Source: Acetobacter thailandicus
GTDB taxonomy: Bacteria; Pseudomonadota; Alphaproteobacteria; Acetobacterales; Acetobacteraceae
Reading direction: 5' to 3'
DNA: 64,000 bases
Assembly (NCBI RefSeq): GCF_011516655.1
Contig: NZ_WOSV01000009.1
Location: 1-64,000 of the forward strand
The notes under the pieces are model-generated. The model searched no databases and had not been told where the DNA came from. It worked only from the letters and a program-made list of their open reading frames with translations. Positions 5,165 to 42,033 of the stretch are shown piece after piece; position 1 is the first letter of the stretch, and each line of letters starts with the position of its first letter. The translations under genes were made by a program, and so were the position numbers.

Positions 5165-6007
5165 ATGCGAAAAAAACAGTCAGGCTCTCTTATACTCAAA
5201 GTAGCCGCTGTTTCTCTGCTGTCCTTATCTGCCACCCTGCAGCCTGCATGGGCTAAGAGAGTCTCTCATTCTGTTACAAATCATCACAGAATAAACAGAG
5301 CTTCTCTGCATTACAGCCATGCCCGCAGACATCACTATGCAGGTGGTGGCCACGTTATTCAGTGTGTTGCCTACGCAAAAACTGCATCTGATGTTGTTAT
5401 TCGCGGTAATGCACGGGACTGGTGGTACAAAGCCGCCGGAGTTTATGAGCGTGGCTCAGCACCCCGCGAAGGTGGTGTACTAAACTTCCGCCCGATACGC
5501 CGCATGCCTCTGGGACATGTTGCTGTTGTACGACAGATCATTAACAGCCGTACTATTATGGTCGATCAGTCACACTGGGCGCAGAACGGCATTGCTCACA
5601 ATACACCCGTTATTGATGTTTCACCCAACAATGACTGGTCAGCTGTTCGCGTTGCACTGAACAATCATTCCGGTAGTTTTGGTTCAATTTACCCGACATA
5701 TGGCTTCATTTACGGGCACGACAATCACAACACCTCAGCGCCTCAGCACCACCAGAATCCTGAAAATGCACGCAGTGCCGTTATGATGGCCTGGGCGAAG
5801 AAAATACAGAATAACCCGAACCTGGCTACCCAGCTTGCTGAGGCTCCGGAAAATGCTCAGCCTGTTGACGGTCTGCACTCAGCCACATCAGATACTGTCA
5901 GCAATGACCAGAACCTCCCGTCAGGGACAAAACAGAAACCTGCTATCAGACACGTTCGGTCAGGTATACATCACAGACCAGGCGTAAGACATACCAGCCA
6001 CAGATAA
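5165..6007 (+). CDS. secreted CHAP-domain protein, probable peptidoglycan hydrolase
   Basis: 280 residues. A Sec signal peptide ends near AWA (residue 30). A CHAP cysteine-peptidase/amidase domain follows: catalytic Cys67 in QCVAYAK, His118 in GHVAVV, and the VDQSHWA strand. CHAP enzymes cut amide bonds in peptidoglycan peptides or between peptide and glycan. Regions flanking the domain are rich in His and Arg (residues 34-63 and the last 25), which could bind metal or the cell wall. The ATG follows a GAGG/AAGG Shine-Dalgarno. The gene stands alone between a dyad upstream and an intrinsic terminator downstream. Confidence 0.8.
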   Translation: MRKKQSGSLILKVAAVSLLSLSATLQPAWAKRVSHSVTNHHRINRASLHYSHARRHHYAGGGHVIQCVAYAKTASDVVIRGNARDWWYKAAGVYERGSAPREGGVLNFRPIRRMPLGHVAVVRQIINSRTIMVDQSHWAQNGIAHNTPVIDVSPNNDWSAVRVALNNHSGSFGSIYPTYGFIYGHDNHNTSAPQHHQNPENARSAVMMAWAKKIQNNPNLATQLAEAPENAQPVDGLHSATSDTVSNDQNLPSGTKQKPAIRHVRSGIHHRPGVRHTSHR

Positions 6008-6035
6008 GGCAAAAACTCATTTTAGTTTCAGATTA

Positions 6036-6066
6036 AACGCATCAGGTTATTACTGGTGCGTTTTTT
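6036..6066 (+). terminator. intrinsic terminator of the CHAP gene
   Basis: Ten-base stem AACGCATCAG / CTGGTGCGTT with one G-U pair, seven-base loop, followed directly by T6. Confidence 0.85.
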
Positions 6067-6112
6067 GTTATGAAGATTTTATAATTCTAAAATTATTTTC
6101 ATAAATCTATAC

Positions 6113-6136
6113 TGACCTTAGCCAACAATAAGGTCA
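6113..6136 (+). promoter_or_regulatory. dyad overlapping the ribosome binding site of the alpha/beta hydrolase
   Basis: TGACCTTA (6113-6120) and TAAGGTCA (6129-6136) are perfect inverted copies around eight bases. The right arm contains the Shine-Dalgarno AAGG (6130-6133) and the first base of the ATG at 6136. It could be a DNA operator or an mRNA hairpin that hides the ribosome binding site. Confidence 0.5.
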
Positions 6137-7083
6137 TGAAAATGCGAAAATTATCCCGCGCTATTCTGAAGTTAGGTGCTTATTATTTATTACTGACATT
6201 TCCTGTTGCCGCGCATACAGAAAATATTTCTCATCAGTCGCAATCTGCTGCGTTTTCTTCGTCACATTTTACCATAACAGACGAAGGAACAACGCAAAAA
6301 CCTGATATTATTTTTATACCAGGGCTAAGCGAAGGACGTGATATATGGGCAAACGAAGCCCTGCGACTTTCATCTGATTATCACCTTCATATGCTACAAA
6401 TTAACGGCTTCGCCGGGCAAAAATTCCCTCACAATACATCCCGTTTCTTTCTGTTACCCTCAGTTGTTAAGCAGCTCCACAACTACATTACGACCCGCCA
6501 TATGCACCCCGTGCTCATCGGGCACTCACTCGGCGGGCTGATTGCTTTGATGCTGTCTCAGCAATACCCACAGGATGTCTCCAAAATCATAGTTGTCGAT
6601 ACACTACCCTTTTATGGTAATTTATATGGCCCTCAGGCGACTGTTGAAAATACAAAAAAGATCGCTCTGGCAACACGTGATAATATTGTGCATCAAAACC
6701 CTGAGCAGGCGAAACAAGCCCAAAAACAGATTGCTCAGATGCTGGCTTTAAGTCCGGCAGGGCAACAATACGTTCTGATAAATACGCAAACCAGTGATCC
6801 CGCGATTGTTGCACAGGCTTTGTATGAAGACGCACAAACAGACCTGCGCCCACAAATTTTATCTAACAAAGTCAAAACCCTTGTTCTCTATGCCTATGAC
6901 CCGACACTGTACGGAAAGACAGATCAAAAAACACCTGCCGGGGATTATATGGAGACAATTTTCAAAGCCGGTTACAAAAATATGCCTGATGTCACGCTGG
7001 TGCGTATCGATAATTCGCGTCATCTGATTATGTTCGATCAGCCCGAAGCCATGCATAAGGCCATCGAAGATTTTCTCAGATAA
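6136..7083 (+). CDS. exported alpha/beta hydrolase
   Basis: 315 residues with an N-terminal hydrophobic export signal (about residues 10-26, VAA-H). The alpha/beta hydrolase fold shows an oxyanion segment IFIPGLSEGRDIW, the nucleophile elbow GHSLGG with Ser131, and a likely catalytic His near residue 297 in DNSRHLIMFDQP. Family members are esterases, lipases or related hydrolases; substrate cannot be told. A second ATG at 6142 has better spacing (8 bases) from the AAGG Shine-Dalgarno than the first (2 bases), so the protein may begin two residues later. A dyad covers the ribosome binding site. Confidence 0.82.
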   Translation: MKMRKLSRAILKLGAYYLLLTFPVAAHTENISHQSQSAAFSSSHFTITDEGTTQKPDIIFIPGLSEGRDIWANEALRLSSDYHLHMLQINGFAGQKFPHNTSRFFLLPSVVKQLHNYITTRHMHPVLIGHSLGGLIALMLSQQYPQDVSKIIVVDTLPFYGNLYGPQATVENTKKIALATRDNIVHQNPEQAKQAQKQIAQMLALSPAGQQYVLINTQTSDPAIVAQALYEDAQTDLRPQILSNKVKTLVLYAYDPTLYGKTDQKTPAGDYMETIFKAGYKNMPDVTLVRIDNSRHLIMFDQPEAMHKAIEDFLR

Positions 7084-7092
7084 AATACCCAT

Positions 7093-7115
7093 AAAAAAGG
7101 GGCCATAAGGCCCCT
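7093..7115 (-). terminator. intrinsic terminator of the gcv operon
   Basis: On the minus strand AGGGGCC-ttat-GGCCCCT is followed by T6. It lies about 25 bp past the gcvP stop. The plus-strand reading has no U-run. Confidence 0.85.
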
Positions 7116-7141
7116 CCGTTACTGATAATAACTTCCTGGTA

Positions 7142-10060
7142 TTATTCCATATACTCCGAAATATCAGGGCAGGTGCACACCAGGTTACGGTCACCATGAG
7201 CGTTATCAATACGCCCGACAGGCGGCCAGTATTTTGTTGTAAACGCGACACCCTCCGGGAAGGCCCCTTGCCTGCGTGGATAGGCACGATCCCACTCGTC
7301 TGCCGTTACGACATCAGACGTATGCGGTGCATGACGGAGAGCTGACTGCTCAGCGCTCAGTCTGCCCGCTTCAACCGCACCAATTTCTGCTCTGATACCC
7401 AGCATTGCGTCACAAAAGCGATCGAGCTCTGCTTTCCCTTCCGATTCGGTTGGTTCGATCATAAAGGTACCCGCAACAGGAAAACTGACTGTTGGCGCAT
7501 GAAAGCCATAATCGACCAGCCGCTTGGCAATATCATCAACGCTCACGCCCGTCTGATCTTTGATCGGACGAAGATCAAGAATACATTCGTGCGCCACACG
7601 GTTATGAGACCCGCGATAAAGCACCGGATAAACTTCTGACAAACGGCTGACGATATAGTTAGCATTCAGCACAGCAACCTGCGTTGCCCGTGTCAGACCT
7701 GCATCCCCCATCAGACGGATATAAGCCCATGAAATTGGCAGAATAGATGCAGAACCAAATGGTGCGGCACTCACTGCCAGCGAGGTCTCAGTCGCTGCCG
7801 GGTTACCTGGCAGAAAGTCCTTCAGATGTGCTTTTACGCCAATTGGCCCCATGCCTGGGCCACCGCCACCATGCGGAATACAGAATGTTTTATGCAGGTT
7901 AAAATGGCTGACATCACCGCCATAATCACCGGGGCGTGCCAGGCCAACCTGCGCATTCATATTGGCGCCATCGACATACACCTGTCCGCCTGCTTCATGC
8001 ACCAGGTCACAGATCTCGCGGATGTTCTGTTCAAAAACACCATGCGTAGAAGGATAGGTAATCATGAAAACGGAGAGATCAGCGGCGTGTACCTGAACTT
8101 TCTCACGCATATCAGCCAGATCGATATTGCCGCCGGCATCACACTTAACCACAACGACTTTCATGCCAGCCATCTGGGCTGATGCCGGGTTAGTACCATG
8201 AGCAGATGCCGGAATGAGGCAGATATTACGATTCTCCTGTCCGCGATGACGATGATATGCGCTAATGGCCAGCAGACCAGCATACTCACCCTGCGCACCT
8301 GAGTTCGGCTGGAATGAGACTGCATCATATCCGCTGACAGCACACAGCCAGCGCTCAAGATCATCAAACAGTGCCTGATAGCCTGTAGTCTGCTCAGCCG
8401 GAGCAAACGGATGAATGGCACTAAAACCAGGCCATGTGATCGGCAGCATTTCGACCGTAGCATTCAGCTTCATTGTACACGAACCAAGAGGGATCATAGT
8501 ACGGTCAAGCGCCAGGTCTTTATCGGCCAGACGGCGCAGATAGCGCAGCATATCAGTCTCAGACTGACAGGAGCGAAACACAGGCTGCGTCATAAAAGCA
8601 GATGTACGGTTCAGCGTATCCGGCAGAGCAGAACCTGCTGCGCTGAGCCCCCGTGCCATGCTCTCAACCTGTCCGGCAGTTTTCTCAAAGACTGTCCAGA
8701 CCGCATACACAATCTCAGCAGTCGTGGTCTCATCAAGGCTGATACCAAGACGTCCCCCGCCTGCATCACGCAGATTGATGCCCGCAGCACGTGCTTTGAC
8801 CAGAATATCCTGCGCAGCAGCGCCAGCCTGAACGGTAATCGTGTCAAAGAAGTGAGACGTTTCAACCGTCGCCCCAAGTGCCTTAAGACCTGCTGCCAGA
8901 GTTGCTGTCAGACCATGTACACGACGGGCAATTGCCTTCAGCCCTTCAGGGCCATGATAGACACCATACATACCGGCAATAATGGCCAGAAGCACCTGTG
9001 CTGTGCAGATATTCGAAGTCGCTTTTTCACGACGAATATGCTGCTCACGTGTCTGAAGAGCCAGGCGATAGGCCGGGTTACCGGCACTATCCACCGACAC
9101 ACCGACAAGACGACCGGGCAGGTTACGCTTATGGGCATCACGCACAGCAATATAAGCCGCGTGCGGACCACCAAACCCCATAGGCACACCAAAACGCTGG
9201 CTTGAGCCGACAGCAATATCGGCTCCCAGTTCACCAGGCGAGGTCAGCAGCGTTAAAGCCAGCAGGTCAGCAGCGACGGCAACAATACCACCAGCCTGAT
9301 GCACAGCATCAGCAAACGGACGCAGGTCTTTCAGGACACCAGATGTACCAGGATACTGAAAAAGAGCACCAAAAATATCAGAGGCAACAAGGTCTGTAGC
9401 AGGGTTACCCACAACAATGGTAATACCGAGGGGCTCTGCACGGGTTTTTAAAACAGTCAGTGTCTGCGGATGACACTCAGCATCGACAAAGAACGCAGAA
9501 GCTTTTGACCTTGCAACACGGTGCGCAAGAGACATAGCCTCAGCTGCAGCTGTTGCTTCATCAAGCAATGACGCGTTGGCAATATCCAGCCCTGTCAGCT
9601 CGGTAATCATCGTCTGAAAATTGAGAAGAGCTTCAAGACGCCCCTGACTGATTTCAGGCTGATAGGGCGTATAAGCTGTGTACCAGGCCGGGTTTTCAAG
9701 AATGTTACGCTGGATGACAGCAGGCAGAACCGTGCCGTAATAACCCTGACCGATGAGAGACGTCATCACCTGGTTCTGGCTGGCCAGTCTGCGCAAATGG
9801 GCCAGAACTTCCTCTTCCGTCCAGCCTTCGCCAATCCCCATCGGGGCTGACAGGCGAATCTCATCAGGCACAGTCTGCTTCATCAGCTCATCAAGCGAAG
9901 AGGCTCCAACTGTTTTAAGCATAACAGCAACATCATCGGCCGAAGGACCAATATGACGCGGCATAAAAGAACCTGCCGCAGGTTTAAGGCCATCAAAAAC
10001 TGACAAGCCTGCTACCGGAGAAGCAGAACAACGATCTGATGCAGAATCAGGGGTGAGCAT
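7142..10060 (-). CDS. gcvP: glycine dehydrogenase (decarboxylating), P-protein
   Basis: P-protein of the glycine cleavage system: a PLP enzyme that decarboxylates glycine and passes the aminomethyl group to lipoyl-GcvH. Both halves of the family are in one chain of about 972 residues. N-terminal landmarks are FMPRHIGPS and LIGQGYYGT; the PLP lysine is about residue 724 in HFNLHKTF, followed by a glycine loop ([13 protein letters not shown]). The ATG at 10060 has an AGGA Shine-Dalgarno about 10 bases upstream and is preferred over an extended start at 10111. Third gene after gcvT and gcvH, but a terminator-like hairpin stands before it. Confidence 0.96.
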
Positions 10061-30037: not shown

Positions 30038-31459
30038 TCACGCAGGTTTAAGAGGCGCTTTACGTCCCTTCATGTTGCGTGGCATTCTGACAGATGTTTT
30101 TTTACTCGCAGCGGCACTGGCTGACGCCACCTTCCGTGTTGTCTTCCCCCTGACTGGCGCTTTAACTGCATGAGATTTTTTTGATGCAGGTTCCTGAGAA
30201 ATAACCTCAGGTTTATCTTTTTTCAGACGGCTCGCATTATCTGTAATGATGTGATCGATCAGTTTTTTATATTCTGCAATAGAATGCTCTATATTCAGAG
30301 AATGCTCAGCCTCAGCCCGCGCCCCTTTACGAATAGTACGGGCCAGCACTTTGTCATTAAGTACCCTGACGATACCATCAGCAATTGCTTCAGGCTCATG
30401 GAAAGGTACCAGAACACCTGTCTCTCCATCCCTGATAAGTTCTCTGACCGGGGCTGTATCACTCCCGACAATTGCACAACCAGCAGCCATCGCCTCACGC
30501 AGAGACCATGATACCACAAACGGGTAAGTCAGATAAACATGAGCATCAGAGCGTTTGATAAGTGTCAGGAAAGTCTCGTACTGCACCTTGCCAAGAAAAT
30601 GCACACGAGAGAGGTCTGTCTGCCCCTCAAGCTCACGTAGCATAATCTCACGCCAGCAGCCTGCTGGCAGCTTCGCCCCGTAACTGATCTCATCACCACC
30701 TACCAGCAACACCCTGACATCTGGTTCCTGCTCAAGCAGGCTGGGAAGTGCACGCATAAACACATGAAAACCACGATAAGGCTCAAGGCCACGAGCGACG
30801 TAAGTAACAAGCTTATCTTTTGGTTTGATCGTTATATCACCAAAAACGACGTCTTTTCGGGCAAGTGTTTTATCAGCTTTACACTTTTCAAGATTAACAC
30901 CCTCTTTTAGCACATGAATTTTTTTCTGTGCCCAATCAGGATACGTACTTAGCTGAAAAAGAGTAGGTGTCTGTCCATAACCGGGGTTGTTAAGTGCCAG
31001 CAGATTAATTGCATTCTTTGCCCGCACCAGCGACCTGAAAGCCTGATCCATAGGAAACTCAGGATCAAAATCGACATCAAACCCGGGGCCTGAATGATAA
31101 TAAAATTCGAAATAACCCAGTACAGGTACATCAGGATAAACATCCTGCATGTTCAGCAATTCACCCCAGCCATGGTGGCCGATAATAATATCTGGTGTGA
31201 AACCAAGCTGCCTGAGTGTCACAGCCGCAGCAGCGACTGCTTCAGCACGGATCATACCAGCTTCAAGTTCTTTTACGCCTGAATGAGCGCCTTCAGCGAC
31301 AGGACGGGGCATACGGTAACGAACCCGCCGGACACCGGAGATAACATTATCATTATCTTCACTGATAAAAACAATTTCATGCTTCTCCTCGCGTGCAAGG
31401 TGCCTCACGAGATGTAAATACTGACCAGGAAAATTCTGGTGTACAAAAAGATACTTCAA
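30038..31459 (-). CDS. family 4 glycosyltransferase with lysine-rich C-terminal tail
   Basis: 473 residues. The N-terminus MKYLFVHQNFPGQYLHLVRHL is typical of the Glyco_trans_4_3 domain. The GT-B C-terminal domain has VTYVARGLEPYRGF and the donor-binding E-x7-E region SLREAMAAGCAIVGSDTAPVREL. Residues about 411-473 form a separate tail rich in Lys, Arg, Ala and Ser (KKSHAVKAPVRGKTTRK, MKGRKAPLKPA), like histone H1 or AlgP tails and not part of a GT4 fold. The neighbouring gene has a similar tail. Acceptor and donor sugars are unknown. Last gene of the block. Confidence 0.85.
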   Translation of the reverse strand: MKYLFVHQNFPGQYLHLVRHLAREEKHEIVFISEDNDNVISGVRRVRYRMPRPVAEGAHSGVKELEAGMIRAEAVAAAAVTLRQLGFTPDIIIGHHGWGELLNMQDVYPDVPVLGYFEFYYHSGPGFDVDFDPEFPMDQAFRSLVRAKNAINLLALNNPGYGQTPTLFQLSTYPDWAQKKIHVLKEGVNLEKCKADKTLARKDVVFGDITIKPKDKLVTYVARGLEPYRGFHVFMRALPSLLEQEPDVRVLLVGGDEISYGAKLPAGCWREIMLRELEGQTDLSRVHFLGKVQYETFLTLIKRSDAHVYLTYPFVVSWSLREAMAAGCAIVGSDTAPVRELIRDGETGVLVPFHEPEAIADGIVRVLNDKVLARTIRKGARAEAEHSLNIEHSIAEYKKLIDHIITDNASRLKKDKPEVISQEPASKKSHAVKAPVRGKTTRKVASASAAASKKTSVRMPRNMKGRKAPLKPA

Positions 31460-31528
31460 GAAAAATACCTATAATATTTATTTTAATAATAAATGAAAAA
31501 CCCGGCCATACAGCCGGGTCATTATAGT

Positions 31529-32749
31529 TTATCGGCGAGAAGCAGGTTTACGTCCACGGGTTGTTTTACGTGGAACGGAAACAGGCTTTTCTGCTTTCGG
31601 GGCAGCTGGCCTGCCGCGACGTGCTGGTACGGCTGGCACCGCTTTCACCGCCACAGCTTTCACGGCCACAGCTTTCGCTTTTCGGGCAGAGGTTTTACGC
31701 TTTTTAGGCGTTATAATTTCTTCTTCTTCAATAACCTCTGTAACCGGAGAATCGCCTTCTTCTTCGATAAACAGATCAAAATCATCTGCCTCGAAGATAT
31801 CACCGTCCTCTTCGTCGAGCAGCACAGCCAGTTCAGCTTCAGCCTCTGCTTTTGCCTTAGCCGAAGCCTTCAGGCTTTTAGCTTTTTTGCCAGCACTGCC
31901 ACGGGGAATAATTTCAAGTAAAAAAGCCTCAAGCGGAGCAAGAGATGCTGCTTCAACGGGCTCATCACCAGAAACTGGTCCGATCTCTGTACCATCTGTA
32001 AAGGTTGCTGTAATACGGCATTCAAATTTTTTCGCCGCCTGACCTTTGAGACGTACACACAAACCAAGGATAGGAAGCGCCATACCACGGCTGCCACAAT
32101 ACTGCCCGCCGGCAACCCATGGTGACAACCAGCCTTTGCCCAGAACAGCCTGATATTCAATATCAGCCGGAGCGATCAGCGAAGCGGGAGCCACACCAAA
32201 ACCTTCAATCCAGGCACGACTGCCCGGCTTACCCATCCATTCACCAAGGCGCGCGGCAACATCACCCCGGCGCTGAATATGCGCACCTATTTCAACTTCA
32301 TCCTGTTTCACTGAGGCCTCAGCCTCCTGTGAGACAACAGCACCTTTAGCAGCCTGACCCTTTGTTGCTGCTGAAGCAACCAGCGGTGCTGCCGATGCGT
32401 CAGACTGCGCGCTGAGCTGAACGACCTGAAGACGGGGCGCTTCGTGCGGCGAACCATCTTCCTGATAAATTGTAACCATGACCTGAGCCGGACCCTGATG
32501 CACCCTGATCAGAGCTGCACCATTAACTGTGCTCATCCAGCCTTCACTATCAAACGTCAGAATTTCGACATTTGCTGTGTTTTTCACAGGTGGCTGCGAA
32601 ATGCGTACACCAGGCAGGCCAGAGGCTGACGGAGGCTGTTGCCCTGGTGTAGAATACACACAGAACAGGCCCGTCTGAAGAGTCATCAGAGATCCTGAGA
32701 CTTTTAAATCCGAAATTTTCTGCTGCGCCGACGCCTGGTTACTAGACAT
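31529..32749 (-). CDS. protein with ChW-like motif, acidic block and histone-like basic tail; unknown function
   Basis: 406 residues, no signal peptide or membrane helix. Residues 20-100 appear beta-rich. Residues 197-235 (IEYQAVLGKGWLSPWV, GQYCGSRGMALPILGLCVRL) resemble the ChW repeat known from clostridial surface proteins: Y...G-GW..W...G...G..G....RL. Residues 286-305 are Lys/Ala-rich, 310-345 are strongly acidic (LDEEDGDIFEADD, EEEEI), and 346-406 are very basic with VAVKA repeats and an AT-hook-like RRGRP (377-381). The charge pattern suggests binding to a polyanion or self-association. No known family is claimed. Within the six-gene block. Confidence 0.7.
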   Translation of the reverse strand: MSSNQASAQQKISDLKVSGSLMTLQTGLFCVYSTPGQQPPSASGLPGVRISQPPVKNTANVEILTFDSEGWMSTVNGAALIRVHQGPAQVMVTIYQEDGSPHEAPRLQVVQLSAQSDASAAPLVASAATKGQAAKGAVVSQEAEASVKQDEVEIGAHIQRRGDVAARLGEWMGKPGSRAWIEGFGVAPASLIAPADIEYQAVLGKGWLSPWVAGGQYCGSRGMALPILGLCVRLKGQAAKKFECRITATFTDGTEIGPVSGDEPVEAASLAPLEAFLLEIIPRGSAGKKAKSLKASAKAKAEAEAELAVLLDEEDGDIFEADDFDLFIEEEGDSPVTEVIEEEEIITPKKRKTSARKAKAVAVKAVAVKAVPAVPARRGRPAAPKAEKPVSVPRKTTRGRKPASRR

Positions 32750-32847: not shown

Positions 32848-35800
32848 CTATTTATTGCCTATATTTATGCTTTTTATCAACATCTCATTAAGCTCTGCAC
32901 CTCTGAGATGCGGATTAATCACAACGCCCTGCCCTGTAGCACGAATGCGTTCAGCAGGCGCACCATGATCGAATGCAATAACAGACAACCCTGCTTTCCA
33001 GGCAAGCTCCAGTGTAAAACACCATGTTTCTGGCCAGACTGATGGTAAAAATGCAGCATCTGCCTGTATAGATTCCAGTAATGTGACTGCATCACCCTCT
33101 TTGTACCGACCGGTAATGTAAACCCGACCAGTATTCAGCAAAGGAGTATCATCAGGGGTATGCCCGACCAGAACAAATTCAAGTGGCAAATCCCGGAGAG
33201 CTGCATCAAGAGCAGCCTGATACAGCACATCATACCCTTTTTCCCGGCCAACCGCGCCCACAATACATAGCCGTAAACGCCGGGATTCTGCCTGCCTGGG
33301 TGTTTTTAAAAAACCATCGGCAGGAACATAATGTCCTGCCGTTGCCTGTTTGCCACGACCTGGCAACTCTGCTCTCTTTACTCTCTTCTCAGCAGGTCTT
33401 ACCACACAGGTGATTTCGGGAAAATGTTTCAACATTCTCTGCGCAGTATCACGAGACGGTACATATACAGTATCTGCCATACTGAGAACCGATGCAGAGC
33501 GCTGTACATATACTGCAACACTAATATCTTCTTCTATATTATTGCCGCCAGTAGAAATACAACGCTCGCACCCTGAAAGATCCGGCTCGCCACAATAGTT
33601 TCCAGATGGGTCAAGCAACGAGATACGCTGACAAAACCACATATAGTCATGCACAAACACATCACAGGAGCAGCATAATTCATTTGCAAGGTGTGCAATT
33701 GACGGATGGTGACCAAGCAGATGATGCAGCTCTACCTTCTGAACATTTTCATGCTGTAAAAGATCGAGCAGCCCGGCATGCTCATCAGGCAACGTAAAAG
33801 CCAAAGACGGAAAATCCTCAGGGGCAGTACTATCTTCAATAAGGCATCCTTTTTTTGATGGCCTGAGAATTAAAACCCGAAAAGAACGCTTCCTGTAACT
33901 GGCGGCCCGCTCCTGAATAACCCGCTCAACTCCTCCGCCGTGATGATGCGTAACCAGTAAAACTGTTTTTTTACACACGCGGGCAGCCACCCCACGTGCG
34001 CGAAAACGCACCTGATCAAAACGCCGGCGCGCCTCAGACAGCGGATCACGCCTGATCCAGTCTGTCACCAGAGCATGATACCCAGGGTGCAGATCCTCAA
34101 GAGTATCAGCATTGCGTGCCATCAGATCTGCCCGGGCACTGCCGAATGAGACAGCCCCTGTATGTGCGACAAATACTCCTGGTGCGGCTTTATGCTTCCA
34201 CCCCAGAGCACGGGCACGCATACAAAAATCATTTTCTTCGCCATATCCCTGGGCGAAAACATCTTCGCGCAACAGTCCTGTCTGCTTCAGGCAATCATGA
34301 CGTATATAAAGGCAAAATCCGTGACCTGTCGGGATGTCATATGACACCCCTTTATTGGCTACCAGTGCTGCAGCCATGAAAACCCTTGTCTGCATTGCAT
34401 CAGGTTCAGCGTTTTCTCTCTCATGCGACGGGTATGACAAAATACTGGCATCGTTTGAAAATGGTGTCACCGTACCTGTCTGCTGATCACGGTAAGCAAT
34501 CCGCCTCAGTTCTGCCAGCCAGCCCTCCGCGACGCATGTATCACTATTGAGCAAAATAACATCATGGCCCGCTAAAGCCCTCAGGCCCTTATTAACTGTA
34601 CCGGGAAAACCAAGGTTACGCTCATTCTGATGACAGGAGAAATTATACTTCTCGCAAAAAGCCTTAACGAAATCGGTCAGCTCCCTCTCGGGGGAAGCAT
34701 CATTGATAACCAGAACCTGAATTTTTATACCCTGAGTTGTCTTTCTGACAGCTTCAAGACAGCGCCTGGTACACGTCAGGTCACGAAATACAGGAATAAT
34801 AATGGCAAGAGGTGCTCGCCGCCCTGAAACCTCCGGTGCGGGAATATTGTTTGTCAGGACCGGAACGGGAAGAAAGCTTTCAGCCACACCCTTATCAGAC
34901 GAAGAAAAAACCTCTGATGCAGTAAGGCGCATGCCGGCAAGGTACCTGGCAACCGCAACCGCACTCCGGGCCTTCTGCCCTGGGAAAAGCGGGCTGCCTG
35001 CCAGGTCGCGGCCATTTTCATCCCTGACACTTATAAAACCTGCAGGCAGCTCATGCTGCGAAAGTGAAAAATGACGGTACATGGCGCCCGGACGTTGAGC
35101 CCCGCCTGTTTCGTCAAGAACTGTTGCATGAACATGCTGCAGAGTTTTACCGCTCTGCACATCAATCACTTTGAGCACAGGCTCTCTTTGCGAGTCATAA
35201 GGAAACCAGGCCCAGCCTCTGAGACCTTCTGCCTCTTCTTCAACAAAACCCTCGCATTTTATAATATGCCCTGGCCTGAAATCATTACCAAAGAAATGAT
35301 CACCACCGGAAAATATAACTGAGACAACCTCAGCATGCTGCCAGCCTTCGGGACAAAACCATTCTTTCCCTCTTCGGCATACAGGCTGAACCGTATTGTC
35401 ATAACATACACTGACAGGCTTTAACGGAAAACGGCTCCCCCACCTGATCTGACCATTACCCTCAAGCCCGCACCAGCCTGCGGCCCCATTAAGGTGGTAA
35501 ATTTTGCTGACAAAATCAGCGATATCTGCATTACAGGAAAAATGAGACAACAAATGCTCTGCAGCGGCTAACGCACCCGCGACGTCCTGCAATTCAAGGC
35601 GCAAACCTGAAAGCAGCATCCACCCTTCTTTAAAATCACACTCTGACAATAACGCAGAAAGAAGTATTTCTGCTTCAGACAGATCTCCTGTCATCTGGCG
35701 TGCAAGCACCAGGGCAAACATGACATGCTGGCTTTCAGGAGCCTGCCTGTTAGCATATTCAAGAAGGTCTCTGGCGGTGGCGTAGTCACGCTCTGCCCAG

Positions 35801-35916
35801 GCTTTAAGACCACTATAATAGGTTTTCTGCGCCTGCTGACTGGCAATGACCGCACGGGACCGGGCGCTCAGTGTCACATCCTGCCAGATCAGTGCTGCTC
35901 CGGAAGACCCGCTCAT
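32848..35916 (-). CDS. large two-glycosyltransferase protein with N-terminal TPRs
   Basis: 1022 residues in four parts. Residues about 25-145 are TPR-like helices. Residues about 150-330 form a beta region including GLRGWAWFPYDSQREPVL, a motif seen ahead of some glycosyltransferases. Residues about 370-620 are a GT2 domain: AIIIPVFRDLTCTRRCLEAV, the DxD-type NSDT at 457-460, GYGEENDFCMRARALGW. Residues about 650-1020 are a GT4-like domain starting at VLLVTHHHGGGVERVIQERA, with LCIVGAVGREKGYDVL. Two transferase centres in one chain suggest successive addition of two sugars. Substrate is unknown. No export signal, so it acts in the cytosol. Confidence 0.83.
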   Translation of the reverse strand: MSGSSGAALIWQDVTLSARSRAVIASQQAQKTYYSGLKAWAERDYATARDLLEYANRQAPESQHVMFALVLARQMTGDLSEAEILLSALLSECDFKEGWMLLSGLRLELQDVAGALAAAEHLLSHFSCNADIADFVSKIYHLNGAAGWCGLEGNGQIRWGSRFPLKPVSVCYDNTVQPVCRRGKEWFCPEGWQHAEVVSVIFSGGDHFFGNDFRPGHIIKCEGFVEEEAEGLRGWAWFPYDSQREPVLKVIDVQSGKTLQHVHATVLDETGGAQRPGAMYRHFSLSQHELPAGFISVRDENGRDLAGSPLFPGQKARSAVAVARYLAGMRLTASEVFSSSDKGVAESFLPVPVLTNNIPAPEVSGRRAPLAIIIPVFRDLTCTRRCLEAVRKTTQGIKIQVLVINDASPERELTDFVKAFCEKYNFSCHQNERNLGFPGTVNKGLRALAGHDVILLNSDTCVAEGWLAELRRIAYRDQQTGTVTPFSNDASILSYPSHERENAEPDAMQTRVFMAAALVANKGVSYDIPTGHGFCLYIRHDCLKQTGLLREDVFAQGYGEENDFCMRARALGWKHKAAPGVFVAHTGAVSFGSARADLMARNADTLEDLHPGYHALVTDWIRRDPLSEARRRFDQVRFRARGVAARVCKKTVLLVTHHHGGGVERVIQERAASYRKRSFRVLILRPSKKGCLIEDSTAPEDFPSLAFTLPDEHAGLLDLLQHENVQKVELHHLLGHHPSIAHLANELCCSCDVFVHDYMWFCQRISLLDPSGNYCGEPDLSGCERCISTGGNNIEEDISVAVYVQRSASVLSMADTVYVPSRDTAQRMLKHFPEITCVVRPAEKRVKRAELPGRGKQATAGHYVPADGFLKTPRQAESRRLRLCIVGAVGREKGYDVLYQAALDAALRDLPLEFVLVGHTPDDTPLLNTGRVYITGRYKEGDAVTLLESIQADAAFLPSVWPETWCFTLELAWKAGLSVIAFDHGAPAERIRATGQGVVINPHLRGAELNEMLIKSINIGNK

Positions 35917-35966: not shown

Positions 35967-37781
35967 TCAGCCGTCATGACTGGCGGCAGGAACACGGGTC
36001 TCAGCCTCAGCAGCCTCAAGGTTTGCAAGCTCAGCCGCTGCTTCAGAGATGCCCTGGGCTGCTGCCTTTTTATACCATATTTTTGCCTGTTCTGTATCCT
36101 GCTCACCAGCGCGGCCGGCAGCAAGGTAACGTCCCATCATCAACTGTGCAGGAGGGTTATTTTTCTCCGCTGCTTTCCTGAACCACTGCTGCGCAGCGAC
36201 AAGGTCCTCAGGCACATCGTGCCCGCCGCCGTACATTGCACCAAGCGAGAACATTCCCCACACGTGCCCCTGGGCCGCTGCTTTTTTATATAACTCCAGT
36301 GCTTGCTGGTGGTCCATTGGCCCACCAGTGCCATTCACCAGAAGATCAGCATAAGCAACCTGGGCATCTGTCATACCAGCCTCGGCAGCTTTTCTGAGCC
36401 AGGCGCGACCTGCTTCAGGGTTCTTATCCGTGCCACGTCCATGCAGAGTAAGAATACCATACCAGTACTGTGCATTAACAATTTTATCAGCTGCAATACG
36501 CAGCCATCTGAGTGCCTCTGCATCACTCTTATAGCTTTGCTCTGTGCCTACCCCCTGAATAAGACACACGGCCAGATTAAAAGCTGACAAAGCATCACCC
36601 TGTTCAGCCTTTGTACGATATACCTGAATAAGGTCAGCGCTTATATCGGAAGAAGCCTGCCCCTGAAGCAGCATATTGCTCAGATCAATGGTTGCGTGAT
36701 TGTGCCCCTGCTCGACTGCGAGCCTGAACCAGCGCTCAGCTTCACGCTCATCCCTGGCAACACCAACGCCCTCTTTAAACAGGGTCCCCAGCGTATAGCT
36801 GGCAGCTGCATGACCGGCTTTTGCTGCCTGCTGATACCACGAAACAGCCTCGACATAATTCGGAGGCAAATCACCACCGCGACCGTACAGATCGCCCAGA
36901 GTAGCCGCCGCCTCTGCATCACCGCCTAATGCTGCACGCCTGAGCCAGGTCTCTCCGCGCACGACATCACGTTCCATACCGTGGCTACCAGCCATTAAGG
37001 CTACACCCAAACGAGCCTGAGCTTTTGGAACACCCTGCTCGGCAGCTTTACTGTAATATGAAAAAGCGGCACCTTCATCAGCAGAGCAGCCACCCATGCC
37101 ATGCTCATACATCACACCCATCAGATATAATGCTGTAGATAAACCAGCATCAGCAGCCTTTCTCAGGTGCTGCGCTGCGACAATATAATCATCCTGAGAA
37201 GAGGCTGTCCCCAGTGTCAGCAGCCCCAGCCCAAGGTGGCCCTGAGCATTTCCCGCTTCAGCAGCCTTACGATACCAGTTTCGGCCTTCTTCAGGATTTC
37301 TGACATCCTCAGGCCCGTTACACAGCACATAACCATAAATTGCCTGGCCATCGACATCACCGAGCTCAGCCGACAATTTAGCCCAGACCGCGGCCCGGTG
37401 AAAATTAGGCTCACCTTTTTCAACAAGAGGCGAGCTCGCACCAAAAAGAGCACCTGAGCTGCCCTGATCTTCAATACTGGCCGGCAAACCGTTCAGATAC
37501 AATGTTGCCATCGTAAAACCAGCTTTAGGCCAGCCTTTACGTGCAGCCTGGCGCATCCAGCGTACCCCCTCCGGCAGGTTGGGTGGCACCCCGTTACCTG
37601 TCAGATAAGCATCGGCAACAAGAAACTGCGCTTCAGGGATATCTTCACGAGCAAGCAGAGAAAGCTGCGAAAAACCCTTAATGGCTGTTTCGGAGGCAGC
37701 CATCAGAGCCTTTGCTCCCTCAAGACGGGCCTCGGCAGACCCATCGCGTCCGACCATCCGTTTGATTAAGCTTACGACCAT
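35967..37781 (-). CDS. Sel1-like repeat protein
   Basis: 604 residues made almost wholly of Sel1-like (SLR) helical repeats of about 36 residues, for example AQFLVADAYLTGNGV...EGVRWMRQAARKG and AASYTLGTLFKEGVGV...EAERWFRLAVEQG; I estimate about fifteen. No signal peptide is seen. SLR proteins serve as protein-protein adaptors. It sits between the type I secretion genes and the glycosyltransferase genes, so a scaffold linking substrate modification to secretion is possible; that is inference. Confidence 0.85.
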   Translation of the reverse strand: MVVSLIKRMVGRDGSAEARLEGAKALMAASETAIKGFSQLSLLAREDIPEAQFLVADAYLTGNGVPPNLPEGVRWMRQAARKGWPKAGFTMATLYLNGLPASIEDQGSSGALFGASSPLVEKGEPNFHRAAVWAKLSAELGDVDGQAIYGYVLCNGPEDVRNPEEGRNWYRKAAEAGNAQGHLGLGLLTLGTASSQDDYIVAAQHLRKAADAGLSTALYLMGVMYEHGMGGCSADEGAAFSYYSKAAEQGVPKAQARLGVALMAGSHGMERDVVRGETWLRRAALGGDAEAAATLGDLYGRGGDLPPNYVEAVSWYQQAAKAGHAAASYTLGTLFKEGVGVARDEREAERWFRLAVEQGHNHATIDLSNMLLQGQASSDISADLIQVYRTKAEQGDALSAFNLAVCLIQGVGTEQSYKSDAEALRWLRIAADKIVNAQYWYGILTLHGRGTDKNPEAGRAWLRKAAEAGMTDAQVAYADLLVNGTGGPMDHQQALELYKKAAAQGHVWGMFSLGAMYGGGHDVPEDLVAAQQWFRKAAEKNNPPAQLMMGRYLAAGRAGEQDTEQAKIWYKKAAAQGISEAAAELANLEAAEAETRVPAASHDG

Positions 37782-37824: not shown

Positions 37825-39285
37825 TTACGGCTCGCGCATTCCCTGGTTCATAAGCGGCATGATCGTATTAAGCATATACTGCATAATCGTTCTCTTACCG
37901 ACCTTAATATCCGCTGTTATTGGCATACCAGGCTGAGGATGGAAGAAACTCGGAACGCCATGTAAAGTGTATTTATCAATTCTCATATGAACCCTGAAAA
38001 ACGCCTGGTTTTTCGGATCAAGTGAGACACCGACCTGCTGCGCATCCTCATCCTGAACGAAGGAGTCCGCACTAATCGTTCTGACAACAGCCTCTGCACC
38101 GCCATACTGCTGGAAAGGGAAGGTTTCAAATTTAACCAGAGCTTTGTCACCCAGCTTTACAAAACCAACGTCTTTACCGGACAGAACAGTCTCAACCTCA
38201 AGCCCCTTACCAACCGGAATCAGGGTCATCATACGCTGCCCGGCAGAGAGAACACCGCCGACAGACACTCTGGCCAGACTAAGAATAATTGAGTCCTCAG
38301 GGGCCCTCATAATCACAAGCTGACTGTGAAGAAGTGCTTTACGATATGATGCTTTTGATTCAGCCAGATGATGTTCAGCAGTATTCAGATCGCGATAAAC
38401 CTCAGCCTTCCAGTTCTGAATATAACTCTCTTTTTCTGAAGTCTGTGCCGCAAGTTTATTGCTGGTTGATGCCGCCTGCTGCTGTGCAGCGATCTGCGAG
38501 CGCTCAATATCCATCAGGGCATTCTGGGCACTCAGCGTTGAAAGCTTACTGCCAACCTGATCTTTCTGCAGCTGCATACGCATAGAGTGCACATCTGCTG
38601 CGACTTTACTTTGCGCTGCATACATAGCTGCACTTGCCTGATACCCTTTCATATCATGCTGAAGGCTGGCGATCATTTTATCATAATTAGTAATCTTGGC
38701 ATTATACTCACCCTGACGGCGAATAAAGGCTTCAGCCTGCTGAGCTGATACAAGATTCTGAGCTGTAGCCGTATACGTCCTGCCATCAGCCTCAGCCAGC
38801 AGACGATCTACCTCAGCCTGGTACTGATCTGTCTGGGCACGCATATTATCAATATCAGCACCGGTTGTTGTCGGATCAAGCTCAGCTAATATTTCGCCTT
38901 TACGAACGTAATCACCTTCACGCACCTTAATAGAACGTACAATTGACGCATCAAGAGGCTGAATAACTATTGGTGTTTCCGTTGAAATCAGCCGTCCTGA
39001 CGTTGAAACCACTTTATCAAGCGGAAAAACAACCATAACTGTCAGGGTCGAGAGCATCAGTGCACCGATCAGCCAGATCATATACTGTGCTGATGCCGTT
39101 GGCGGCATGTTAACCAGAGCCGCAGTAGGCGAATGAAACTCAAGCAGGCCTATAGGCAGGTCACCAGGAGCGTAGGGGTCATCTGCCTGCCGGATAAAAG
39201 CTGTCGCTGTTTCATCTGGCATCTCATACTGAACAGGTTCCTGTGACTGAGGCTGCCCTGCGGGAATAATATCCTTCTCGCTCAT
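37825..39285 (-). CDS. HlyD-family type I secretion periplasmic adaptor
   Basis: 486 residues: about 65 cytosolic residues, one membrane helix (68-88), a lipoyl/barrel hybrid start (RSIKVREGDYVRKGEILAELDPT), a long alpha-helical hairpin (about 160-330, Gln/Ala-rich), then the C-terminal beta part ending in IDKYTLHGVPSFFHPQPGMPITADIKVGKRTIMQYML, a classical HlyD signature. It bridges the inner membrane ABC protein and an outer membrane TolC-type channel. The ABC gene ends three bases upstream of its ATG. No tolC-like gene is in the window. Confidence 0.93.
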   Translation of the reverse strand: MSEKDIIPAGQPQSQEPVQYEMPDETATAFIRQADDPYAPGDLPIGLLEFHSPTAALVNMPPTASAQYMIWLIGALMLSTLTVMVVFPLDKVVSTSGRLISTETPIVIQPLDASIVRSIKVREGDYVRKGEILAELDPTTTGADIDNMRAQTDQYQAEVDRLLAEADGRTYTATAQNLVSAQQAEAFIRRQGEYNAKITNYDKMIASLQHDMKGYQASAAMYAAQSKVAADVHSMRMQLQKDQVGSKLSTLSAQNALMDIERSQIAAQQQAASTSNKLAAQTSEKESYIQNWKAEVYRDLNTAEHHLAESKASYRKALLHSQLVIMRAPEDSIILSLARVSVGGVLSAGQRMMTLIPVGKGLEVETVLSGKDVGFVKLGDKALVKFETFPFQQYGGAEAVVRTISADSFVQDEDAQQVGVSLDPKNQAFFRVHMRIDKYTLHGVPSFFHPQPGMPITADIKVGKRTIMQYMLNTIMPLMNQGMREP

Positions 39286-39288
39286 GGC

Positions 39289-41538
39289 TTATTCTCCTTC
39301 CGCGATAAGGGAGGTATCACCCACGGCACTACCATGTGTATGACGGTTCTGCTGCATCCAGAGCGTACGATAAATATCACACCGCTCAAGCAAAACATCA
39401 TGAGGCGCTATATCAACGACAGACCCCTTATCCATCACACAAATCTGGTCACAGTTCACAAGCGATGACAAACGGTGCGACACAATGACCATCGTGCGCC
39501 CTTTGCCTATACGTTCCAGGTTGGCATTCACCAGTGCTTCACTCTCAGGGTCGAGAGCTGATGTTGCCTCGTCGAGAATCATCAGTTTCGGATCGGTGAT
39601 GACTGCACGGGCAATAGCAAGACGCTGACGCTGCCCACCGGAAATATTAGTCGAGCCCTCTTCAATAAAGGTCTCATACCCTGCAGGCATACGCTCAATA
39701 AACTCCTCAGCGCCAGCCATACGTGCTGCACGCATAACATCATCAATCGTATAGCCCGGACGACCCGCCGTAATATTTTCACGGATTGTACCACGAAACA
39801 GAAAGTTATCCTGCAACACAACACCGAAGGAACGACGCAGATGGGTAAGGTTAATTTCCCGCAGGTCAATACCGTCAAGGCGCAGATAACCCGTATAAGA
39901 ACGGCTGACACCCTGCAGCAGACGGGTTATGGTTGATTTACCTGAACCACTTCGCCCGACCAGACCCAGCATAGTGCCGGCAGGAATCTGAAAGTTCACA
40001 TCTTTAAGCGCCAGACTTGTCGCGCCGGGATAGGTAAAGTTAACGCCATCAAAAACAAGAGCGCCTTTAATAGCCGGACGCATTCCTGTTGTCAGCGCAA
40101 CTGTCTCTGACGGCTGATTCAGGACCGAAGCCGCATCGCCTAAGGAGGTCATAACTTCCGTATAATCATCCATCAGCTTGGCCAGGCCAACAAGCGGAGA
40201 GGCAACACGACCACCCAGCATCATAAACGCAACAAGCGCACCAACACCTACTGTACCGGGACTTGTCAGCGTGAGATAAGCGCCAACAATAAGAATGCCG
40301 CGACTAATAAACAAATCCAGCGGCATCACCAGCGTTTGTGGCCAGTTCATCATACGTCCGGCAGCAAGCTTCCAGCGCACAACGCGGGCTGTCATTTCAT
40401 CCCACACATGCTTACGGCTGTTTTCAAGAGCCAGCGTTTTGAGAGTACGAATACCAGCGACAGTCTCATAAAGAATCGCAGAACGATCACGTTCAGCAAG
40501 CAGCTGATGCTGCATGACTTTAGTAACAGGGCCGGTAAACAACACTACAATGAGCCCGATAAAACCAGCGGCACCTATTGTCATCCAGGCCAGTGTCGAA
40601 CTTAAGAAGAACAGAAACGGTAAAATTACAACAAGAGTAAACAAATCCAGAAAAGTGGACATAAGCCTGCCGGTCAAAAAGTCACGCACTTTATAAATAG
40701 CCATGACACGACCAAGAAGGTTACCCGCCTGCTGCCGCTCAAAATACTCAAGAGGTAACGACACAAGACGATTAAAAATATTAAGAGATAAACGTGAATC
40801 AACACGGGTTGTCAGAACGAGGGAAACCTCACGCCGTGCATAAGACAAAAGAATTTCATAAACTGAAAACACGACGATCATACCGGTAATCGCCACCAGA
40901 GTAGACATCGAGTGATAATTAATAACTTTATCAATAATCTGCATCACGATAAGCGGCGGAAAAATCTGCAGCACACTTAATGTCATTGACGACAGTGCAA
41001 TATCACGCAGGGATTTCTTCTCACGCAACACCATCTTGGTAAACCAGGCGAAACTGATTGGCGCATCAGCCTCTGACTGCCCCTCTCGTGCTTTCACCAG
41101 AACGATCTCACCTGTCCAGATACGGCTCAGGCGCAGCTCGTCAACTGGTACCGGGGGTGTCTCTTCCCCCTTCAGGGGATCACGCAGCCAGACAACACCG
41201 CGGTCGGGCGTTGTATTGACCATAATGGCCGCTGATCCATCTTTAAAAAGCAGAACAATAGGGGGCGAATTCGACATTCTGACAAGGTAGCGCCACTTGA
41301 TCTGCATCCCCTTGGCGGCAGCACCCTGCTCTTTCAGCCAGCGGCACAACGTTGCAGGAGACGGGCTGACCTCACCTGGCTCTGCCGCAAAATCCCGTAT
41401 ATCAAGCTCAAGCCCATGAAACCGCGCCGCTGCAATAACAGCACGCAACCGGATAATAGCGGGTGATACGCGTTCTTCACCCATATCAGTATGTGACTGA
41501 GAGCCAGAGACTTCCGGAACATTGTCAGAATGATTCAC
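39289..41538 (-). CDS. type I secretion ABC transporter with C39-like domain
   Basis: About 749 residues: C39-like domain (about 25-155), six-helix ABC exporter membrane domain, and an ATPase domain with GRSGSGKST, NISGGQRQRLAIARA and LMILDEATSAL. The C39-like part (SPAIIRLRAVIAAARFHGLELDIRD) lacks the catalytic Cys of bacteriocin-processing exporters, as in HlyB, so the substrate should be a protein with an uncleaved C-terminal signal (RTX type). The GTG at 41538 has AAGGG seven bases upstream; an upstream GTG at 41598 has no Shine-Dalgarno. First gene of the block. Confidence 0.92.
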   Translation of the reverse strand: MNHSDNVPEVSGSQSHTDMGEERVSPAIIRLRAVIAAARFHGLELDIRDFAAEPGEVSPSPATLCRWLKEQGAAAKGMQIKWRYLVRMSNSPPIVLLFKDGSAAIMVNTTPDRGVVWLRDPLKGEETPPVPVDELRLSRIWTGEIVLVKAREGQSEADAPISFAWFTKMVLREKKSLRDIALSSMTLSVLQIFPPLIVMQIIDKVINYHSMSTLVAITGMIVVFSVYEILLSYARREVSLVLTTRVDSRLSLNIFNRLVSLPLEYFERQQAGNLLGRVMAIYKVRDFLTGRLMSTFLDLFTLVVILPFLFFLSSTLAWMTIGAAGFIGLIVVLFTGPVTKVMQHQLLAERDRSAILYETVAGIRTLKTLALENSRKHVWDEMTARVVRWKLAAGRMMNWPQTLVMPLDLFISRGILIVGAYLTLTSPGTVGVGALVAFMMLGGRVASPLVGLAKLMDDYTEVMTSLGDAASVLNQPSETVALTTGMRPAIKGALVFDGVNFTYPGATSLALKDVNFQIPAGTMLGLVGRSGSGKSTITRLLQGVSRSYTGYLRLDGIDLREINLTHLRRSFGVVLQDNFLFRGTIRENITAGRPGYTIDDVMRAARMAGAEEFIERMPAGYETFIEEGSTNISGGQRQRLAIARAVITDPKLMILDEATSALDPESEALVNANLERIGKGRTMVIVSHRLSSLVNCDQICVMDKGSVVDIAPHDVLLERCDIYRTLWMQQNRHTHGSAVGDTSLIAEGE

Positions 41539-42033
41539 GAACAACCCTTTTGATAAAACGCAAACATTTCGTGTCGTTAAAAACTTTTTGTCACACAATC
41601 AGAGAGAATATAACTCTTTGAAAAAAATAATAATCAGAAATCAGGTGTTTTTTTGTGCAACAGAGCTTTGACACCTAACTGAACCACATTGAAAAATCAC
41701 TCAAAAATTTTCACAAACTATCCTTAAGTCCGTACATTCCTGACACAACGCGGCTTTGCACAACCATATCGCACACCTCGTTTATGACATTTTTTTCACA
41801 AATAAGAAATACTTGTGTAAAAAAACAACATTGCCCCGTTGCACGATCGCGAAATATTTTCGCCAGAAGCTGGTCTATATCAAACGGATTAACACAACAT
41901 GCACATGTGCGCCCGTGCCTTACCAGAGGACCATACCAGACACGGCTTTCTGCCCAGCTCTGCAGCAGATCAGAATGTAGCGTAAAATTGATAAATACTG
42001 CGGCACTCTGATTCCGCTGAGCCGGAACATTCT

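What the first reader, a model, noticed from the sequence alone, without database searches (positions are those of the whole stretch)
30038..32749. Two adjacent proteins share histone-H1-like Lys/Arg/Ala tails
The GT4 (residues about 411-473) and its neighbour (346-406) both end in disordered basic tails. The neighbour's tail has VAVKA repeats and an AT-hook-like RRGRP and is preceded by an acidic block. Such tails are not expected on a glycosyltransferase. They may bind an acidic polysaccharide, nucleic acid, or the acidic block of the partner.
Basis: partly seen in the sequence, partly recalled or inferred. Interest (0 to 1): 0.65.

Follow-up and report, generated by a model that had tools for sequence, protein, structure and literature searches.

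The report
Charged tails on a glycosylation-secretion protein pair
Two neighbouring acetic-acid-bacterium proteins, a sugar-transferring enzyme and its partner, carry real and evolutionarily conserved floppy positively charged tails, and they sit in a gene cluster that most likely decorates and exports an acidic surface protein.

Summary
The GT4 (30038-31459, -) and its neighbour (31529-32749, -) have the two most basic C-termini of 361 sampled ORF products of this genome (+14 and +20 in the last 60 residues). The tails resemble each other only in composition. The neighbour is a ChW-domain protein matched in 200 of 299 Acetobacteraceae genomes; its basic tail is kept in 56 of 60 fetched loci, whereas the GT4 tail is a later gain (14 of 60). 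Within the genus, the neighbour's acidic block co-evolves in length with the GT4 tail (33 genomes; phylogeny-corrected r=0.57, p=0.0006); charges covary only weakly (p=0.08). The neighbour's tail alone carries a recurrent AT-hook-like RGR[K/P]. Both genes belong to a conserved six-gene cluster: HlyB-like ABC transporter, HlyD, Sel1, GT2-GT4, ChW, GT4. An unlinked RTX protein (pI about 4) is present in exactly the same 24 of 37 congeners, so it is the likely cargo. Best reading: the tails are electrostatic connectors of a cytoplasmic glycosylation module feeding a type I secretion system. The GT4 tail docks on the partner's acidic helix; what the partner's own tail binds (cargo, membrane or nucleic acid) is open.

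The parts
30038..31459 (-). GT4 glycosyltransferase (PF12000 + PF00534), 473 aa, TTG start
   Evidence: nearest solved structures by sequence PimA/MshA, by fold MshA/BshA
30041..30214 (-). GT4 disordered basic tail, residues 416-473, K-rich
   Evidence: pLDDT below 50; net charge rank 2 of 361
31529..32749 (-). ChW-domain partner protein, 406 aa, no signal-peptide-like start (by inspection only)
   Evidence: PF07538 26.2 bits over cut-off 22; 8 of 8 members of A1 match
31715..31894 (-). helix and acidic block of the partner, residues about 286-345
   Evidence: length covaries with the GT4 tail
31532..31714 (-). basic tail of the partner, residues 346-406, with RRGRP and RGRKP
32848..35916 (-). 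GT2-GT4 fused glycosyltransferase with TPR, same cluster
35967..37781 (-). Sel1-repeat protein, same cluster
37825..39285 (-). HlyD-type type I secretion adaptor
   Evidence: TIGR01843 320 bits over cut-off 209
39289..41598 (-). HlyB-like type I secretion ABC transporter
   Evidence: best of 189 models TIGR01846, 532 bits, below its cut-off of 726

Best explanation
The two proteins are cytoplasmic subunits of a glycosylation module that serves a type I secretion system of Acetobacteraceae. The module probably glycosylates an acidic, Ser/Thr/Asn/Gly-rich RTX protein before it is exported in one step. The tails are flexible electrostatic connectors. (1) In this genus the lysine-rich GT4 tail docks on the acidic helix/block of the ChW partner and holds the enzyme in the complex. 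(2) The older, widespread basic tail of the ChW partner holds a second anionic surface, most likely the unfolded acidic RTX cargo or the anionic inner membrane at the transporter. Shown: tails, their conservation, the gene cluster, co-occurrence with the RTX gene, length co-evolution of block and GT4 tail. Inferred: that the six genes are one transcript, that the GTs act on the RTX protein, that the complex exists, and both docking steps.
For: Six-gene cluster complete and in order in 9 of 12 relatives inspected: L060, L062-L066, L167-L169; of the other three, L061's Sel1 frame was not seen and L067 and L068 are cut by contig ends. A GT4 gene beside ChW in 60 of 60 fetched loci from 51 genera; these loci were chosen as ChW matches. 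RTX gene present in the same 24 of 37 genus genomes and absent from the same 13; 90 of 93 family genomes with an RTX match also have ChW. RTX proteins have pI 4.05-4.55 in 32 of 32, and a relative of the downstream GT lies beside them in 30 of 32. In the 14-kb stretch of G009 only a broken ABC gene and a GT4 without its first 47 residues remain, and that genome has no ChW or RTX match. Acidic-block length vs GT4-tail length: Spearman 0.85, phylogenetic contrasts r=0.57, p=0.0006, 33 genomes; control lengths (own basic tail, inter-domain linker) do not covary.
Against: The charge (rather than length) covariation of block and GT4 tail is weak after correction (r=0.31, p=0.08) and vanishes when only the 29 genomes with a block are kept (r=0.16, p=0.40; length there r=0.40, p=0.03). 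The block's charge also covaries with the partner's own basic tail (r=0.51, p=0.003), so intramolecular balancing is as compatible. RTX charge does not covary with tail charge (Spearman -0.17, p=0.43, n=25). In most of the fetched loci the GT4 has no tail (36 of 60 have at most 8 residues beyond the core), so a GT4 tail is not essential. Three family genomes have an RTX match without ChW (G064, G185, G302). No sugar transfer, complex or export was tested.
Confidence: 0.42

Rival explanations
1. Membrane tether: both tails mainly bind the anionic inner membrane, keeping soluble glycosyltransferases next to the transporter; the acidic block only tunes or masks the tails.
For: Membrane-associated GTs are described as binding bilayers through amphipathic helices together with lysine/arginine contacts, charge-dependently for DGD2, and PimA changes structure with anionic phospholipids (PMC12022483, passages read). 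PimA is the best solved relative of this GT4 by sequence. Composition-only conservation of most tails fits a non-specific anionic surface. The block covaries with its own basic tail.
Against: Does not by itself explain why the partner's acidic block tracks the GT4 tail length, nor the recurrent RGR[K/P] in the ChW tail.
Confidence: 0.25
2. Nucleic-acid binding: the ChW tail is an AT-hook/histone-H1-like DNA or RNA binder, and the module is attached to the nucleoid or to its own mRNA.
For: RGR[K/P] in 17 of 24 genus ChW tails against 0.66 expected in shuffles, and in 5 of 57 tails from other genera against 0.52 (g26, g66 twice, g72, g97); its position in the tail differs between clades. AlgP, a DNA-binding and polyphosphate-granule protein, has a histone-H1-like KPAA tail (PMC9239181, abstract). 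The name AT-hook is recalled.
Against: No Pfam AT-hook match in any of 8 members up to E=10 (HMMER drops most weak matches). 52 of 57 tails outside the genus lack the motif, as do all 22 GT4 tails. Shuffles do not correct for common descent. A glycosylation/secretion cluster gives no reason for DNA binding.
Confidence: 0.13
3. Polyphosphate- or condensate-forming tails: H1-like tails gather the enzymes into polyphosphate- or RTX-rich droplets.
For: AlgP precedent (PMC9239181, abstract and section headings only); the ChW tail of the genus is an acidic-basic diblock in 20 of 24.
Against: Nothing in the locus or in the co-occurrence data points to polyphosphate; not tested.
Confidence: 0.07
4. 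Neutral low-complexity extensions that drift by slippage, with no selected function.
For: Length and sequence vary strongly; short in-frame repeats (VAVKA). GT4 tails are gained or lost repeatedly on the tree.
Against: Positive charge kept in 56 of 60 ChW tails over 51 genera. RR within the last five residues in 27 of 57 tails outside the genus against 2.8 expected in shuffles. Seven other GT4s of the genome lack such tails.
Confidence: 0.13

Closest known systems
GT4 (GT-B) glycosyltransferases of the PimA/MshA/BshA type
   Same: Domains, and sequence and fold of residues 1-414
   Different: 58-residue disordered basic tail; gene lies in a type I secretion cluster
HlyB/HlyD type I secretion systems with RTX cargo
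   Same: HlyB-like ABC transporter, HlyD adaptor over its cut-off, RTX-repeat cargo candidate over the Pfam cut-off
   Different: Cluster carries GT2-GT4, GT4, Sel1 and ChW genes; the presumed cargo gene is unlinked; the ABC score is below the TIGR01846 cut-off
ChW (clostridial hydrophobic W) proteins
   Same: One ChW repeat over the Pfam cut-off; ChW is described as a predicted surface-anchoring or protein-protein interaction domain, 1-12 copies per protein (PMC5817068, passages)
   Different: Clustered with glycosyltransferases and a type I exporter; no signal peptide seen by inspection; acidic-basic tail
AlgP / histone H1-like bacterial tails
   Same: Lys/Ala/Pro-rich C-terminal tail (PMC9239181 abstract)
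   Different: Different cores (not compared by tool); tails of about 60 rather than 154 residues; RGR[K/P] and C-terminal RR

Membership tests
GT4 glycosyltransferase family | GT-B fold with PF12000/PF00534 domains over cut-off | tested here: met
   181.6 and 79.5 bits; fold matches
GT4 glycosyltransferase family | retaining sugar transfer activity | not testable with these tools
   no assay
ChW proteins | ChW repeat over the Pfam gathering score | tested here: met
   26.2 vs 22 bits; 8 of 8 members match at E <= 10, best 6.9e-7
ChW proteins | exported, surface-bound protein | tested here: inconclusive
   start of the protein shows no signal peptide by inspection; no predictor was on hand
Type I secretion system | HlyD adaptor over curated cut-off | tested here: met
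   TIGR01843 320.2 vs 208.65 bits
HlyB subfamily (TIGR01846) of type I secretion ABC transporters | score over curated cut-off | tested here: not met
   531.7 vs 725.55 bits, though it is the best of 189 models; called HlyB-like, not HlyB
Type I secretion system | RTX cargo | tested here: inconclusive
   RTX protein co-occurs exactly in the genus and has PF00353 over cut-off; export not tested
AT-hook proteins | RGRP-like core in a basic/proline-rich stretch, Pfam AT_hook | tested here: inconclusive
   core motif enriched over shuffles, no Pfam match
Histone H1-like tail proteins | lysine-alanine repeats such as AKK/KKA | tested here: not met
   AKK and KKA not enriched over shuffles in either tail; KPAA was not tested

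The most novel reading that the evidence does not exclude
A cytoplasmic glycosylation-secretion complex widespread in Acetobacteraceae in which an interchangeable polycationic arm, usually on the ChW subunit but moved to or duplicated on the GT4 in some lineages, recruits the unfolded acidic RTX cargo, with an acidic helix on the ChW subunit acting as dock or competitor for the GT4 arm. In four loci of genera g92, g120 and g122 the ChW tail is only 2-15 residues and the GT4 carries a +6 to +16 tail instead (post hoc: 4 of 7 loci with short ChW tails against 10 of 53 others, Fisher p=0.045, two clades). Against it: the other 3 of 7 short ChW tails have no basic GT4 tail, and the general complementarity test was not significant.
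Probability: 0.2. Interest if true: 0.72.

Novelty: new variant of a known kind. Interest (0 to 1): 0.5.

Why it matters
If right, it ties together three facts in acetic acid bacteria and their relatives: a type I secretion cluster with its own glycosyltransferases, an RTX protein encoded elsewhere, and disordered charged tails that co-evolve between partners. It would give a tractable case of glycosylation coupled to one-step export, with electrostatic arms as assembly code. My library searches for type I secretion with glycosyltransferases plus RTX, S-layer, adhesin, Acetobacter or Acetobacteraceae returned 0, 1, 4 and 0 papers, none of which describes this system as far as titles and the starts of abstracts show; the library holds open-licence papers only.

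Tried and rejected
Tail duplication: local alignments of one tail to the other equal shuffles, rejected. General complementarity of the two tails over 60 loci: not significant at four thresholds. RTX charge against tail charge: no correlation. Structure of the ChW protein: 8 sequences only, model too poor for a fold search, so none was run. PDB profile search for ChW: one match at E=0.49, not used. Literature search for 'hydrophobic W' with Acetobacter: 18 papers, 10 listed, unrelated by title; a search on lysine-rich tails and glycosyltransferases led only to AlgP as relevant. The contrast analysis was repeated after adding eight genomes; the length correlation fell from r=0.77 to 0.57 and the charge one from p=0.03 to 0.08 (tree rebuilt and minimum branch length raised from 0.0001 to 0.001). 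Rows dropped: G008 (contig end) and G010 (GT4 hit in three pieces) from the pair analyses; G009 has no ChW; L015 was left out of the family table. The split of the ChW tail into acidic and basic parts uses my own rule (last 10-residue window with at least four D/E).

Full report
Observation. The window lies in an Acetobacter-like genome: the named relatives found are seven Acetobacter and two Gluconacetobacter loci. The GT4 and its neighbour are at the stated places. Among 361 ORF-called proteins of at least 120 aa from the window and 20 other stretches of the genome, they rank first (neighbour, +20) and second (GT4, +14) by net charge of the last 60 residues, and are the only two with charge at least +12 and few hydrophobic residues. 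Seven other GT4s and four large glycosyltransferases of the genome have no such tail. AlphaFold gives a reasonable GT-B core (mean pLDDT 74 overall) and a structureless GT4 tail from residue 416. The ChW model is poor (mean pLDDT 47).

The two tails are not copies of each other: local alignment scores equal shuffled ones. Pooled over the genus, ChW basic tails have K/R 0.88 and GT4 tails 1.59. RGR[K/P] occurs in 17 of 24 ChW tails of the genus (0.66 expected in shuffles) and in 0 of 22 GT4 tails. AKK and KKA, recalled as typical of histone H1, are not enriched.

What the neighbour is. It has one ChW repeat over the Pfam cut-off, and 8 of 8 aligned members match the family. It is found in 35 of 49 genomes of the genus, 200 of 299 genomes of the family (74 of 102 genera) and 0 of 24 genomes of other families of the class. 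In the order search all 105 matches are in this family; 25 unmatched genomes were not listed. Two proteins of the same genome with weak O-fucosyltransferase similarity end in a stretch related to the partner's second domain. Their ChW and O-FucT scores are below the Pfam cut-offs, or absent, so this is a lead only.

Tail evolution. In 60 fetched loci from 51 genera, all chosen as ChW matches, a GT4 gene is beside ChW in 60. The ChW basic part has net charge at least +4 in 56 of 60, the GT4 tail in 14 of 60; 36 of 60 GT4s end within 8 residues of the core. So the ChW tail is probably the older one, and the GT4 tail was gained in this genus and some other lineages. In the two Gluconacetobacter loci the GT4 has only 13-16 residues beyond the core.

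Co-evolution. In 25 genomes of the genus, acidic-block length and GT4 tail length had Spearman 0.88 and phylogenetic-contrast r=0.77 (p=7.5e-6); charges r=0.43 (p=0.034). With eight more genomes (33 in all): length r=0.57 (p=0.0006), charge r=0.31 (p=0.08). Restricted to the 29 genomes with a block: length r=0.40 (p=0.03), charge r=0.16 (p=0.40). Controls: own basic-tail length r=-0.17, linker length r=-0.23, neither significant. But the block's charge also follows the charge of its own basic tail (r=0.51, p=0.003). The four genomes without a block (G003, G019, G020, G031; two places on the tree) have the four shortest GT4 tails, 5 to 31 residues.

Surroundings. Six genes in one direction: HlyB-like ABC transporter, HlyD, Sel1, GT2-GT4, ChW, GT4. 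I infer an operon; transcription was not examined. All six lie in this order in 9 of 12 relatives inspected: named loci L060, L062, L063, L064, L065, L066, and L167 (g78), L168 (g66), L169 (g100, only the C-terminal part of GT2-GT4 aligned). In L062, L065 and L066 my ORF picker preferred another frame over ChW, which was then read. In L061 the Sel1 frame was not seen and not followed up; L067 and L068 are cut by contig ends. The outgroup GT4 of G058 (44% identical) lies beside genes unrelated to the cluster.

Cargo. The genome has an RTX protein of 470 aa at another place, between two large glycosyltransferases. In the 37 genomes of the genus examined in both searches it is present in exactly the 24 that have ChW and absent from the 13 that do not. 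In 299 family genomes 93 have a match and 90 of these have ChW (chance 3e-16 by the hypergeometric, which ignores relatedness); G064, G185 and G302 have RTX without ChW. 110 genomes have ChW without an RTX match; RTX detection is limited by divergence, so absence there means little. In 32 fetched RTX genes the pI is 4.05-4.55, and a downstream-GT relative is beside 30. RTX charge does not covary with tail charge. In genome G009 a 14-kb stretch keeps only a broken transporter gene and a GT4 lacking its first 47 residues, and the genome has no ChW or RTX match: the module and its presumed cargo appear to have been lost together.

Mechanism. Because nucleotide sugars are cytoplasmic and type I export is one step (established knowledge), the enzymes must act before export if the RTX protein is their acceptor. 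Basic arms on the enzyme pair could hold an acidic unfolded cargo and each other. Supported by data: partner docking in this genus (length co-evolution). Only plausible: cargo or membrane binding by the ChW tail. Membrane binding is a serious rival, since membrane-associated GT-B enzymes use basic elements for it (PMC12022483, passages). Nucleic-acid binding is kept open by the recurrent RGR[K/P].

Verdict. Real, conserved and unusual; likely a new variant of type I secretion with built-in glycosylation. The tails' ligand is not decided.

Noticed in passing
L072 6526-7938 (G000:C1:484526-485938): Acidic 470-aa RTX protein between two large glycosyltransferase genes, co-occurring with the T1SS cluster of the window; candidate cargo.
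   Followed up: yes
L170 (G009:C142) 5292-8049: Decayed cluster: broken ABC transporter gene running into a GT4 lacking its first 47 residues, interior genes gone; this genome also lacks an RTX match.
   Followed up: partly
L026, L029 (G000:C4:54127 and C2:213692): Two proteins with weak O-fucosyltransferase similarity whose C-terminal part resembles the ChW partner's second domain.
   Followed up: partly
L112 (genus g38): GT4 orthologue with a 267-residue Ser/Pro/Glu/Lys-rich tail of nearly neutral charge, unlike the other 59 fetched loci.
   Followed up: no
L066, L124, L141, L160: ChW tails share a longer motif around GRGRKAPGSR followed by LLKAR, seen in genus g66 and g97 and in Gluconacetobacter.
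   Followed up: no
window 30038-31459: The GT4 begins with TTG in the window; many relatives also read Leu or Val at the aligned start.
   Followed up: no
L138, L150, L153, L164: Genera g92, g120, g122: ChW tail very short and the basic tail is on the GT4 instead.
   Followed up: partly
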